Of a DNA stretch of 64,000 nucleotides, positions 26,709 to 32,726 are shown one piece after another. The translations under genes were made by a program, and so were the position numbers. The stretch comes from Peribacillus frigoritolerans. Its GTDB lineage: Bacteria; Bacillota; Bacilli; Bacillales; DSM-1321. Numbering within the stretch: the first letter of the stretch is position 1; every line of letters begins with the position of its first letter. The DNA lies in the NCBI RefSeq assembly GCF_040250305.1, contig NZ_CP158190.1, positions 3,504,001 to 3,568,000 on the forward strand, written 5' to 3'. The notes below the pieces were generated by a model, which saw nothing but the letters and a program-made list of their open reading frames with translations, had not been told where the DNA came from and made no database searches.

Positions 26709-28082
26709 TTAAGATTGAAGCGTCGGTAAGACCTCTTTAAACGCTTTAATGACTGTATCGACTTCATCCAACTGAATAGTCAATGACGGCTCAATCCTGA
26801 TTGTTTTGGAATTGATAAGCGTACCTGCCACCAAGATGCCTTTATCAAAGAGGGCTTTTGAGAATTCATAACCCACTTCATCTTTATGGAACTCAATGCC
26901 AATCATCAATCCTTGGCCGCGGATTTCCAAGACCTTATCTTTGTGTTCAGCAGCCACTTCCCTTAACCCATTTAAGAAGTATTCACCAACTTCTGCAGCA
27001 CGCTGCGGTAAGTTTTCTTCCAAAAGTACGTCGATCGTAGCAATGGCCGCAGCACAAGCTAGTGGATTTCCACCAAATGTCGTAGTGTGCATGAATGGAT
27101 TGTCGAACCAGCTTTTAAATACTTTCTCATTGGCTACGACAGCTCCTGCAGGCATTACTCCGCCGCCAAATGCTTTCGCTAAACAAATAATGTCCGGAAC
27201 AACATCATATAGCTCAGAAGCGAACATTTTACCTGTCCGTCCCATTCCTGTTTGCACTTCATCCAAGATCAATAACGCATCATATTCGTCACACAATGCC
27301 CGAACCTGCTTTAAATAATCTTGCGGAGGAAGAATGACCCCTCCTTCACCTTGAATAGGCTCTAACAGCACAGCAGCAACATCTTCACCGACCAATGCAC
27401 AACTTTCAAACGTTTTTCTCATCATATCCACATCACCGAATGGTACATGACGCACACCTGGTACCAACGGGATGAACGGTTTTCTGAACATGCCCTTTGC
27501 CGTTGCCGATAGGGAACCAAGGCTTTTCCCATGAAATGATTTTGTCGTGGAAATGATCGTGTATTTGTCACTGTACATTTTAGCCAGCTTAAGTGCAGCC
27601 TCCACGCTCTCGGTACCGCTGTTCGTAAAGAACGAGTATTTTAGATCTCCCGGCGTGATTTCGGCAAGGATCTTGGCAAGCATTGCACGTAATGGGTCAA
27701 GTAAGTCCTGGCTATGAAGGGCTTGTCTTTGTAACTGATCGGTTACTGCCTTTACTACTTTAGGGTTACGATGGCCAACATTATAAATACCAAACCCGCC
27801 TAAACAATCAATATATTTTTTTCCATTTACATCCGTAAAACAGGAATCTTGATCAGACCACTCCACCGAAGCGAATTGTGTGTCTTTAGTGACCGTCTTC
27901 CGATATTCCAAAAATCCAGGGTTTACATGGTTACGGAAATTCTCGACCGTTTCTTTTGTTACCCACTGCGCATCTTCTTTTGAAATTTCTTTTTGCTCGA
28001 TTAATTGAAGCACTTTTTTAATATAATCTTGGGTTGCTGATTGGTTAGCTTGAGTGTTTTTACTTTCTACGTTAATTGACAT
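26709..28082 (-). CDS. patA: Putrescine aminotransferase
   Basis: Class III PLP aminotransferase expected to convert putrescine and 2-oxoglutarate to 4-aminobutanal and glutamate. 457 residues. Much of it reads like E. coli PatA/YgjG, for example [32 protein letters not shown](D/E)[11 protein letters not shown] and the C-terminal [15 protein letters not shown]. The PLP lysine is Lys303 in CLAKAFGGG, and the cofactor-phosphate segment [15 protein letters not shown] (154-168) is intact. It has a -24/-12 sigma-54 promoter and tandem activator palindromes upstream. The next enzyme, 4-aminobutanal dehydrogenase, is not in the window. Confidence 0.92.
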
Positions 28083-28188
28083 TTTATAAGCTCCTTTTTT
28101 TTATAACTTTAGTGGATGGTTAACTGAGATTGCTTATTTTATAAAACTTTGATGCTTACCTCCCTTTTTTCTTATACTTACTAATCAA

Positions 28189-28203
28189 GCAAGAACCATG
28201 CCA
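28189..28203 (-). promoter_or_regulatory. Sigma-54 (-24/-12) promoter of patA
   Basis: On the minus strand TGGCATGGTTCTTGC (28203-28189) has GG and GC separated by exactly 10 bases and closely fits the TGGCAC-N5-TTGC consensus. The transcription start would be near 28177, about 95 bases before patA. Confidence 0.85.
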
Positions 28204-28252
28204 AGTTAATTACCCAATAAAACCGCATTCTTTTTGATAAATTACGCTAAAA

Positions 28253-28290
28253 TTATGCAAATTTGCATATCGATATTTCAATTTGCATAA
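28253..28290. promoter_or_regulatory. Tandem activator-binding palindromes upstream of patA
   Basis: Site 1 TTATGCAAATTTGCAT (28253-28268) has a perfect 14-bp palindrome core at 28255-28268, centred 28261.5. Site 2 (28273-28290), a degenerate copy ending ATTTGCATAA, is centred 28281.5. The centre of site 1 is 72 bp from the -12 GC. The same motif and spacing recur at the permease promoter. Confidence 0.75.
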
Positions 28291-28337
28291 TCATCCTTGT
28301 AAATCATAAAAAAAAACTTCCCAAATGCTCTTATAAA

Positions 28338-28384
28338 ATAAAAGCCGTTGACGAGTGATTTTTCATCACTCGGCAACGGCTTTT
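28338..28384 (-). terminator. Intrinsic terminator after the sigma-54 activator gene
   Basis: AAAAGCCGTTG then CGAGTGAT, a short loop and ATCACTCG then CAACGGCTTTT: a long near-perfect stem right after the stop codon. Confidence 0.9.
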
Positions 28385-28386
28385 AT

Positions 28387-30633: not shown

Positions 30634-30682
30634 TGACCTAAAAACCTGCTATGCACCTTAGACTTATTTTATAAAGGACCGT

Positions 30683-31169
30683 TCACCTTTTCTTATTATT
30701 CCTGATCAGGATTGATAAAACGATGAATATGGCTATGAAAAAGCAGCCATAGTACAGAAGGCAGCCGGTTTCATCCCCATGATATCGATAACCGTCACAA
30801 TAATCAGTAAATTCAGCACCCATGCAAAAGCCGGTACAAAAGGAAAAGCTGCTGAGAAGAAAAAATGCCGAAAACAAGAAATTGACCATTTAAATGGATA
30901 AAAAATCGATCTAAGAAAACCGGCATATGTATTGATAGAACTTTGCGCGTACGCATATACCTAACCTGCCGAAGGAATGACCTTTGCCATCTGTCCATAA
31001 TATATGCTGTGAAAAGCATCATCATTAAAGCGAACAAGCAGGCCTCCGGAACCATTCCACGTGACATCTCTGCAGCAATTCCATAAGCGCTAAATCACTG
31101 TTGCTAATTCCATGACAAAAAACCGAATAGAAAGAGCGTTAAAGACCTTTTCATTTTCTCATCAGCCAT
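30683..31169 (-). pseudogene. Decayed second APC-family permease (N-terminal part only)
   Basis: A good ribosome site (GAAGGAG) and ATG at 31169 start MADEKMKRSLTLFLFGFLSWN, then TAG and TGA stops. The same frame resumes with YGIAAEMSRGMVPEACLFALMMMLFTAY. Another frame continues with YGQMAKVIPSAG, a stop, YAYAQSSINTYAGFL and later FPFVPAFAWVLNLLIIVTVIDIMGMKPAAF. A third ends with the membrane piece FFIAIFIVLSIL. These blocks align in order with the first roughly 170 residues of the intact importer next door. Multiple frameshifts and stops, and no C-terminal half: a dead duplicate or related permease. Confidence 0.75.
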
Positions 31170-31203
31170 ATAACAGACTCCTTCGTTCATGAAGTGAGTA
31201 AAT

Positions 31204-32541
31204 TCACTGTGCCTCTTCAAAACGGAATAGCGGGGGGGATTCCGTAAACCATTTTGTCCGATACAGAAGATAACCAATCCCAATTACCGCCCATACAATT
31301 CCTAGGATCAATGAACTCGTCTCGAGATTAAGCCAAAGGATGAAGACCGATGCAGCACCTAAAACCGGGGACAGAATAGTTGAAAGAAATCCTTTAATCG
31401 TTCTGAAGCTTTTGTTTCTTATTGAATGGACGATTACACAAATATTCACGAAAGTAAAAGCAATTAATGCTCCAAAGTTTATGAGGGAAGTGGCGGTAAC
31501 CAAATCAAGGAATAAGGCAACCAATGATATGGACCCAACAAATATGACATTAAAAAATGGCGTGTTGTATTTTGGGTGGACAAACCCAAATAGTTTTTTC
31601 GGGATCATTTGGTCACGTCCCATGACATATAGCAACCTAGAAACACTAGCATGGGATGCAAGCCCGGAGGCAAGTGTACCACATAAAGTTCCTGCAAGAA
31701 AGAAGGCTTGAAATAACTTCCCGCCAACAAAAAGGGCAATTTCCGGAGAAGCTGCTTCTGGATCGCTAAAACGGGAAACATCCGGGAAAAATAACTGTGT
31801 AAAGAATGATGCCGTCACAAATAAAACCCCTCCGATAAGGGCGGTCAAAAAGATGGCCCGGGGAACCGTTTTAGCTGGATTCGGTGTTTCTTCCGATAAA
31901 GTAGTGACAGCGTCAAACCCCAAGAAAGAAAAACAAAGGATTGTAGCACCAGTTATGAGCGTCGACATTTCCATATGATGCCCGAAGAATGGCTGAACCG
32001 ATAAGACCTCTCCAGTCCCTGCTCCACCCATGACCCCTTTAACGACAAGCGCCACAAATATAACAATCACCAACATTTGAAAAAAAACAAGGAAGCTATT
32101 AAAGTTGGCGGCAAAATTAACATTGAATAAGTTAATGCCTGTCATTAAAAGGACAAATGCCACCACCCATATCCACGGGTACACCTCCGGAAAAAGAGCT
32201 GTTAAGTATATTTTTGTTAATATGCCATTCACCATCGGTAAAAATAAATAATCAAGTAACGAAGACCACCCGACAAGGAAGCCTAAATGTGGATTGATCG
32301 TTTTTTGTGTGTAAGTATAGGATGAACCTGCCTGCGGATAAATTTTTACCATTTTCCCATAACTGGCGGCAGTAAACAACATCGCTAAAAGAGCAATGAC
32401 ATAAGCGGTTGGCACATGTCCCCCCGTTTTTTCGGAAACTATCCCAAATGTATCAAAAACAACCATCGGCGTCATATATCCAACACCAAGCAATACGATA
32501 TGCCACAAGTTTAAAGACCTTTTCAGATTACCTGTTTGCAT
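31204..32541 (-). CDS. APC-family putrescine importer (PuuP-like)
   Basis: Amino acid-polyamine-organocation permease, 445 residues, about twelve transmembrane helices. It closely resembles E. coli PuuP along its length: [11 protein letters not shown]...[87 protein letters not shown]. This supports proton-coupled putrescine uptake at the plasma membrane. It has a sigma-54 promoter and the same tandem palindromes as patA. The decayed second permease lies 34 bases downstream. Confidence 0.9.
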
Positions 32542-32625
32542 GTATCATTCCCCTTCCTTTTTTAGCGAGAAAAGTTAACCAACTTTTCTGGCCTCCCTTA
32601 TAATTCTTTGGTCATATTACACCTC

Positions 32626-32640
32626 GCAATTTTCATACCA
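32626..32640 (-). promoter_or_regulatory. Sigma-54 (-24/-12) promoter of the importer
   Basis: On the minus strand TGGTATGAAAATTGC (32640-32626): GG-N10-GC with the TGGYAY-N5-TTGC pattern. The transcription start would be near 32614, about 70 bases before the gene. Confidence 0.82.
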
Positions 32641-32689
32641 AAAAAAATAGTCGATTTATAACAAAAAACAAGGAAATATGTAGAATGCT

Positions 32690-32726
32690 TTATGCAAATT
32701 TGAATAACTTATTCAATTATTCATAA
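32690..32726. promoter_or_regulatory. Tandem activator-binding palindromes upstream of the importer
   Basis: TTATGCAAATTTGAATAA (32690-32707, centre 32698.5) and TTATTCAATTATTCATAA (32709-32726, centre 32717.5) are imperfect copies of the patA palindrome, spaced 19 bp centre to centre. The proximal centre is 72 bp from the -12 GC, identical to the patA arrangement. Confidence 0.72.

What the first reader, a model, noticed from the sequence alone, without database searches (positions are those of the whole stretch)
26709..32726. Self-contained sigma-54 putrescine-utilisation island
Seen: a PatA-like aminotransferase, a PuuP-like importer and an enhancer-binding protein with two PAS domains lie together, and both functional genes have GG-N10-GC promoters. 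Known: PatA and PuuP families act on putrescine; enhancer-binding proteins with a GAFTGA-type loop drive sigma-54 promoters. Inferred: the activator senses putrescine, or a product of it, and turns on uptake and the first catabolic step. In B. subtilis yphE adjoins gpsA, so about 6.8 kb was gained here or lost there. I do not know of a described Bacillus system with this layout.
Basis: partly seen in the sequence, partly recalled or inferred. Interest (0 to 1): 0.75.

Follow-up and report, generated by a model that had tools for sequence, protein, structure and literature searches.

The report
Sigma-54 putrescine catabolism regulon hub
A soil Bacillus relative carries a small gene island for taking up and breaking down the polyamine putrescine, probably switched by its own activator, whose presumed DNA mark also sits in front of related genes elsewhere on the chromosome.

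Summary
The island is real. Minus-strand genes are patA (26709-28082), a sigma-54 enhancer-binding protein (EBP, 28387-30492) and puuP (31204-32541). PatA passes both putrescine-aminotransferase equivalog cut-offs. PuuP and PatA are each 61% identical to E. coli PuuP and PatA. Both promoters are clean -24/-12 sites, the only two matches of TGGYAYN5TTGC in the window.

At one mismatch or fewer it occurs only at these two places in 5.6 Mb. A matrix trained on other genera finds it before an unlinked aldehyde dehydrogenase and a PuuP-like/AguB-like operon, and more weakly before a glutamate dehydrogenase and an agmatinase. These sites are conserved in the genus loci examined.

"Self-contained" is therefore wrong: the island looks like the regulator-bearing part of a dispersed regulon. 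In 30 of 39 loci outside the clade the EBP lies with PatD and PatA. The gpsA-yphE location was gained in this clade. Ligand, binding and activation are inferred. New member of a known kind, with an unusual mosaic history.

The parts
26709..28082 (-). patA, putrescine aminotransferase (457 aa)
   Evidence: NF008570 772.4/612 and TIGR03372 661.5/658.65; 61% identical to E. coli PatA; best PDB match 4uox
26635..26674 (-). terminator-like hairpin after patA
   Evidence: listed by the terminator scan, 18 pairs; -28.6 kcal/mol
28189..28203 (-). sigma-54 promoter of patA, TGGCATGGTTCTTGC
   Evidence: same in 10 of 12 named clade loci, one base different in 2
28253..28270 (-). proximal activator palindrome (UAS) of patA, ATATGCAAATTTGCATAA
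   Evidence: one of only two genome sites with at most 1 mismatch; 21.5 bits
28273..28290 (-). distal UAS of patA, weaker, 20 bp further upstream
   Evidence: 13.1 bits at -87
28336..28388 (-). strong hairpin between EBP and patA, possibly a terminator
   Evidence: -33.7 kcal/mol for 28330-28390; not listed by the terminator scan
28387..30492 (-). EBP: GTG start, about 118-residue N-terminal domain without match, PAS1, PAS2-like region, AAA+ with GSFTGA loop, HTH_50
30760..31169 (-). remnant of a second PuuP-like permease, decayed
   Evidence: tblastn pieces 31-36% identical; longest open frame of the gap 93 aa
31204..32541 (-). puuP-like putrescine importer (APC family, 445 aa)
   Evidence: 61% identical to E. 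coli K-12 PuuP over 433 residues; PF00324
32626..32640 (-). sigma-54 promoter of puuP, TGGTATGAAAATTGC
   Evidence: identical in 12 of 12 named clade loci
32690..32707 (-). proximal UAS of puuP, TTATTCAAATTTGCATAA
   Evidence: 24.0 bits
32709..32726 (-). distal UAS of puuP
   Evidence: 18.5 bits at -86, 19 bp from the proximal one
32921..34045 (-). gpsA, flank
   Evidence: abuts puuP in 20 of 30 loci examined, yphE in 10 of 30
25795..26088 (-). yphE (DUF2768), flank

Best explanation
The island encodes the uptake step (PuuP) and first catabolic step (PatA) of putrescine degradation, plus a dedicated sigma-54 activator. The activator binds one or two tandem copies, about 19-20 bp apart, of an 18-bp palindrome (TTATGCAAATTTGCATAA) centred about 58 and 78 bp upstream of the -24 element. 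When its sensor domains bind a signal, most likely putrescine itself (about 50%; 4-aminobutanal or GABA about 25%, agmatine about 15%), its AAA+ ring opens the sigma-54 promoters. It acts on the two island promoters in cis. In trans it acts on unlinked promoters with the same palindrome: a PatD-like aldehyde dehydrogenase (genome 602.5 kb), an operon with a PuuP-like permease, an amidohydrolase and an AguB-like amidase (1158.6 kb), and probably a glutamate dehydrogenase (3399.6 kb) and an agmatinase (3402.0 kb). Agmatine, N-carbamoylputrescine or external putrescine would thus be funnelled to GABA, with glutamate dehydrogenase returning the 2-oxoglutarate used by PatA. Shown here: gene identities by family and homology, promoters, palindromes, their rarity and conservation, gene clustering in relatives. 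Inferred: protein-DNA binding, activation, the ligand, and enzyme activities in this strain.
For: PatA equivalog cut-offs passed; PuuP and PatA 61% identical to the E. coli proteins. UAS with at most 1 mismatch only at the two island promoters in 5.6 Mb. UAS matrix trained on 84 promoters from non-clade loci: 4 of 82 own promoters reach 14 bits against 0.06 expected and a mean of 0.094 for 500 column-shuffled matrices, none of which reached 4. Site found before PatD-like ALDH in 14 of 14, GDH 15 of 15, agmatinase 14 of 15, the permease of the AguB-like operon 7 of 7, and patA (PatD-PatA in G022) 15 of 15 genus loci; no promoter with site before paralogues (ALDH 0 of 4, agmatinase 0 of 4, GDH 0 of 5). 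Of 39 non-clade loci, 30 have PatA, the same 30 PatD, 26 GDH, 24 GabT, 23 GabD, 15 agmatinase (one partial). Of 26 genus genomes the same 15 hold the EBP, this GDH and this agmatinase. Sigma-54 genes are present. A Bacillus megaterium patDA pair works on cadaverine in a Bacillus host (PMC8274714, passages), and Priestia megaterium has the EBP at 61% (P0094).
Against: No binding, expression or enzyme data. The UAS seed was read from the island promoters, so those two sites are not independent of it (the unlinked ones are). The GDH and agmatinase sites score only 13.2 and 12.4 bits; a promoter beside another EBP (2977.9 kb) also scores 12.4, so a paralogue could share part of the site. One agmatinase locus (L197) showed no site. 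No GabT orthologue was found among the 13 class III aminotransferases that PatA detects in this genome (best 35%), so the route beyond GABA is open. Six loci (L053-L057, L059) carry the EBP without PatA. The PatD-like and AguB-like proteins miss their cut-offs. Co-occurrence follows one clade and is not independent evidence.
Confidence: 0.75

Rival explanations
1. The pathway's physiological substrate is another amine (cadaverine, agmatine or a longer polyamine) and putrescine is secondary.
For: E. coli PatA is reported to act on cadaverine about as well as on putrescine (PMC9397018, passages), and the B. megaterium patDA pair was assayed on cadaverine (PMC8274714, passages). Agmatinase and an AguB-like amidase belong to the predicted regulon.
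Against: The permease is 61% identical to PuuP. The L036 cluster ends in proteins that pass GabT and SSADH models, which fit the C4 product GABA. Agmatinase and AguB reactions both yield putrescine (recalled).
Confidence: 0.15
2. The island promoters are driven by another of the genome's EBPs, or by a general nitrogen signal, and the adjacent EBP has other targets.
For: 22 strong EBP matches, this one included, and two sigma-54 genes leave room for cross-talk.
Against: The palindrome travels with this EBP family across genera and marks the genes beside it. It was not found before paralogous genes, and only 5 of the other 80 own promoters examined reach 12 bits.
Confidence: 0.07
3. The unlinked sites before GDH and agmatinase are relics of the old cluster and no longer used, so the working regulon is only the island plus the stronger unlinked promoters.
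For: Their scores are low (13.2 and 12.4 bits), and one agmatinase locus showed no site (L197). The clade's EBP is not the sister of the P. asahii EBP that still sits beside these genes.
Against: A second copy at 19 bp is seen in 15 of 15 GDH and 14 of 15 agmatinase loci, though sometimes weak, down to 1.8 bits. Both genes stay in exactly the EBP-bearing genomes.
Confidence: 0.3

Closest known systems
GabR and the gab cluster of Bacillus thuringiensis (PMC4279683, abstract and passages)
   Same: A PAS-AAA-HTH EBP near its target, a -24/-12 promoter, binding to repeats just upstream, pathway compounds (GABA, succinic semialdehyde) as inducers
   Different: GabR has one PAS domain and its HTH ends at residue 447; its site holds a 21-bp repeat 105 bp before gabT. 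The present EBP has 701 residues with an extra N-terminal region, a different palindrome, and putrescine genes as targets.
E. coli patA and puu genes under NtrC and sigma-54 (PMC9397018, passages)
   Same: Homologous PatA and PuuP (61% each), sigma-54 control
   Different: E. coli uses the global nitrogen regulator NtrC and the repressor PuuR. Here a dedicated EBP is encoded between the genes.
Bacillus megaterium patDA (PMC8274714, passages)
   Same: PatA and PatD as a pair, as in the relatives' clusters; function shown on cadaverine
   Different: Regulation was not treated in the passages read. In the present genome a different dehydrogenase, unlinked, appears to serve.
PrdR-type EBPs (NCBIfam NF041552)
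   Same: Best-scoring EBP equivalog for this protein (421.4 bits)
   Different: Far below the cut-off of 795; the target genes differ.
Large sigma-54 regulon survey (PMC12316311, passages and section 18 part 1)
   Same: Predicts sigma-54 control of COG0334 (GDH) and COG0010 (agmatinase/arginase) in Bacillota and COG4992 and COG0160 aminotransferases in Bacilli
   Different: In the parts read, COG-level enrichment only: no activator, no binding site, no putrescine pathway in Bacilli.

Membership tests
Putrescine aminotransferase (PatA) | Equivalog cut-offs NF008570 and TIGR03372 | tested here: met
   772.4 vs 612 and 661.5 vs 658.65
Putrescine aminotransferase (PatA) | Activity on putrescine | not testable with these tools
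   needs an assay
PuuP putrescine importer | High full-length similarity to E. coli PuuP | tested here: met
   61% over 433 residues; no PuuP equivalog model appeared among the 21 families; other E. coli APC importers were not compared
PuuP putrescine importer | Putrescine transport | not testable with these tools
   needs uptake assay
Sigma-54 enhancer-binding protein | Sigma54 AAA+ domain with GAFTGA-type loop and C-terminal HTH | tested here: met
   PF00158, PF25601, PF18024; loop GSFTGA in the alignment
Sigma-54 enhancer-binding protein | Binds upstream activating sequences | tested here: inconclusive
   conserved palindrome fits, no binding data
PrdR (NF041552) | Equivalog cut-off 795 | tested here: not met
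   421.4 bits
GabR-regulated gab cluster | gabT and gabD as neighbouring targets | tested here: not met
   neither in the island; no GabT orthologue among 13 class III aminotransferases
PatD aminobutyraldehyde dehydrogenase (602.6 kb gene) | TIGR03374 or NF010000 cut-off | tested here: not met
   420.9 vs 909.3 and 520.2 vs 615; claim kept as 'PatD-like'
Agmatinase (3402.0 kb gene) | TIGR01230 cut-off | tested here: met
   208.8 vs 174.3; the subfamily model NF002564, 283.2 vs 302, is not met
N-carbamoylputrescine amidase AguB (1158.6 kb operon) | TIGR03381 cut-off | tested here: not met
   336.9 vs 410.25; called AguB-like

The most novel reading that the evidence does not exclude
In the Peribacillus simplex/frigoritolerans clade the polyamine regulon is a mosaic. 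An island of different ancestry brought or replaced the activator. The older half of the cluster (agmatinase, permease, GDH) stayed behind, and a non-orthologous aldehyde dehydrogenase was captured by acquiring the same palindrome. One EBP would thus hold together in trans a pathway whose parts have different histories, and the pathway may stop at GABA, which the cell could release or pass to another transaminase.
Probability: 0.35. Interest if true: 0.6.

Novelty: new member of a known kind. Interest (0 to 1): 0.45.

Why it matters
A widespread EBP family gets a likely pathway, a candidate binding site and a target list: 649 proteins at E <= 1e-30, of which the 120 listed bear generic names where named, but for one labelled NorR. 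That makes polyamine sensing in Bacillaceae directly testable, in bacteria that live in soil and on roots where putrescine and agmatine are available (ecology recalled, not from a call). It also offers a case of a gene cluster taken apart while its regulon seems to be kept by a shared DNA site.

Tried and rejected
Plain GG-N10-GC as evidence: rejected, it is at chance level.

Simple relocation of the P. asahii-type cluster to gpsA: rejected for the EBP. GDH of the clade does group with P. asahii.

PatD orthology of the 602.6-kb dehydrogenase: rejected. It groups with another ALDH (98/94 support), away from the cluster PatD.

My by-eye label 'gabT' for the aminotransferase at 599.6 kb, made while working: withdrawn. 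It is of an omega-amine-transaminase type, and its upstream site scores only 9.2 bits.

GABA transaminase in the own genome: looked for among the 13 class III aminotransferases, not found. The pair at 2951.8/2953.0 kb, first thought to be GabT/GabD, is not GabT (33%).

N-terminal 118 residues of the EBP: the fold searches were filled by AAA+ or PAS domains; no match is claimed either way. A sequence search of the solved structures with residues 1-245 gave one weak PAS hit.

Rows dropped: 12 of 96 near-identical training promoters were removed, and 82 of the 83 own sites were scored (one lost to the script's duplicate/edge filter). In the trees 8 clade loci were thinned out; only 20 EBP and 19 PatA rows were used. 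In the gpsA test, 30 of 41 genomes had a locus to look at, the best-scoring ones.

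Full report
WHAT IS THERE. The window is part of a complete 5.6-Mb chromosome (G000:C1:3504001-3568000). The closest named relatives by EBP are Bacillus sp. and Peribacillus frigoritolerans, P. simplex and P. muralis genomes. Between yphE and gpsA, on the minus strand, lie patA (26709-28082), an EBP gene (28387-30492) and a puuP-like permease gene (31204-32541). PatA passes two equivalog models, matches the solved putrescine aminotransferase 4uox and is 61% identical to E. 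coli PatA. The permease has no equivalog over its cut-off in NCBIfam but is 61% identical to E. coli PuuP over 433 residues. The EBP has the sigma-54 AAA+ domain and HTH_50 and one PAS domain by Pfam, and a GSFTGA loop; a second PAS-like stretch and a further N-terminal domain appear in the predicted models. The best solved match of PAS1 is the CitA cytoplasmic PAS.

PROMOTERS AND ACTIVATOR SITE. TGGYAYN5TTGC occurs twice in 64 kb, before patA and puuP (0.48 expected). Starting 67 bp before each lies a near-perfect copy of TTATGCAAATTTGCATAA, with a weaker second copy 19-20 bp further up. In the whole genome this palindrome with at most one mismatch is found only at these two places; at up to three mismatches 13 places appear, against 9 for the reversed control, so weaker matches alone mean little. 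In the 12 named clade loci both promoters are present with a site of at most 5 mismatches at -67 to -70 or -87 to -88, 12 of 12.

RELATIVES. A scan with the EBP sensor region gave 51 loci. Twelve (L011-L022) have the same island between gpsA and yphE, 12 of 12. Of the other 39 (L023-L061), recounted, 30 carry PatA, the same 30 a PatD-type dehydrogenase, 26 a glutamate dehydrogenase, 24 GabT and 23 GabD in the same direction, and 15 (one partial, L041) an agmatinase. Of the 9 without PatA, L031, L058 and L061 are cut short (12.9, 9.1 and 11.3 kb held). The other six (L053-L057, L059) all have NhaC and an omega-amine transaminase, whose PDB relatives include putrescine and polyamine transaminases. 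GabT and SSADH of L036 pass their models. So where the surroundings can be read, the EBP family goes with amine catabolism, and with PatA in most loci.

REGULON IN TRANS. A matrix of the palindrome was refined on 84 promoters from non-clade loci only (seed consensus from the island) and applied to 82 of the 83 sigma-54-like sites of the own genome. Top scores: island puuP 24.0, island patA 21.5, PatD-like ALDH at 602.5 kb 21.1, PuuP-like permease / amidohydrolase / AguB-like operon at 1158.6 kb 19.7 (second copy 15.5), GDH at 3399.6 kb 13.2 (second copy 10.2), then a promoter beside another EBP at 2977.9 kb 12.4 and agmatinase at 3402.0 kb 12.4 (second copy 9.3). Four sites reach 14 bits where 0.06 are expected; column-shuffled matrices gave 0.094 on average and never four in 500. 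In the genus loci examined the site stands before the PatD-like ALDH in 14 of 14, agmatinase 14 of 15, GDH 15 of 15, the permease of the AguB-like operon 7 of 7, and patA (PatD-PatA in G022) 15 of 15; for paralogues of ALDH, agmatinase and GDH no promoter with site was found (0 of 4, 0 of 4, 0 of 5). Beside the own GDH lie the same two small ORFs that follow it in the relatives' clusters. The agmatinase passes TIGR01230; the AguB-like and PatD-like proteins miss their cut-offs.

HISTORY. In 26 genus genomes (own included) the EBP orthologue is present in 15, and the GDH (86% or more) and agmatinase (88% or more) are in the same 15; the 602-kb PatD type (93% or more) is in 14 of them, the fifteenth (G022) having a cluster-type PatD. 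G022 (contig length equal to that of P. asahii MA001, L037) keeps PatA-PatD-EBP-GDH together with a permease in two frames and the agmatinase, and there gpsA abuts yphE (L312). Of 30 gpsA loci examined, 20 have puuP next to gpsA and 10 have yphE: the segment was gained in the clade. The EBP tree rejects a clade of these genomes with P. asahii (p-AU 2.9e-5), PatA does not (0.22), and GDH groups with P. asahii. The island's activator thus appears to have a different ancestry from the GDH it seems to control. Remains of a second PuuP-like permease lie between puuP and the EBP gene in the window and were matched in 5 of 12 named relatives; in none of the 13 is a frame longer than 114 aa open there.

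MECHANISM. Best reading: the EBP binds tandem palindromes, responds to putrescine or a close product, and opens sigma-54 promoters for uptake (PuuP), supply (agmatinase, AguB-like), first steps (PatA, PatD-like) and amino-acceptor regeneration (GDH). By analogy, gabT transcription in B. thuringiensis is induced by GABA and succinic semialdehyde through GabR, and its PAS domain restrains activity (PMC4279683, abstract and passages). None of the binding, activation or ligand steps is shown here. No GabT orthologue was found among 13 class III aminotransferases, so the fate of GABA is open.

LITERATURE. The listings showed no paper on a sigma-54 activator of putrescine genes in Bacilli. The library holds open-licence papers only. 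PMC4428206 (passages) lists eight EBPs of B. thuringiensis HD73, by name none for putrescine. PMC4524646 (passages) does not contain the word putrescine. PMC12316311 (passages and section 18, first part) predicts sigma-54 control of GDH and agmatinase/arginase COGs in Bacillota and related aminotransferase COGs in Bacilli. PMC8274714 (passages) shows B. megaterium patDA working on cadaverine. PMC9397018 (passages) states NtrC/sigma-54 control of E. coli patA and puu.

VERDICT. Observation confirmed; interpretation partly supported. A new member of a known kind (substrate-specific EBP with catabolic targets) whose dispersed, mosaic regulon is the more interesting part.

Noticed in passing
own genome C1:5191650 (L155:4642-6003:-) and C1:597820 (L076:3815-5185:-): Two full-length sigma-54 genes, 453 and 456 aa, only 38% identical. 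The second lies beside a transaminase/dehydrogenase pair and the PatD-like gene, with two sigma-54-like promoters between them.
   Followed up: partly
own genome, 22 places: 22 strong sigma-54 activator domains, against eight reported for B. thuringiensis HD73 (PMC4428206, passages).
   Followed up: no
window 26250-26400: GC-rich repeat-like stretch between patA and yphE; a 46-base core occurs once in the window. Genome copies not counted.
   Followed up: partly
L053-L057, L059: Loci, mostly of halophile or alkaliphile genera (recalled), where EBP orthologues sit with NhaC and an omega-amine transaminase instead of PatA and PuuP: a possible change of substrate within one regulator family.
   Followed up: partly
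L036:9327-9617 and 9630-9887; L157:3240-3793: Two small proteins (SAV0927-like and biotin/lipoyl-like) follow the GDH gene in these clusters (found in 26 and 31 of 39 loci); role unknown.
   Followed up: no
L077 (C1:3368000-3387500): Two EBP genes with an oxygenase-type cluster and an ALDH paralogue; genus counterparts of that ALDH showed no promoter with the palindrome. By-eye reading as an N-demethylation cluster is recalled, not tested.
   Followed up: no
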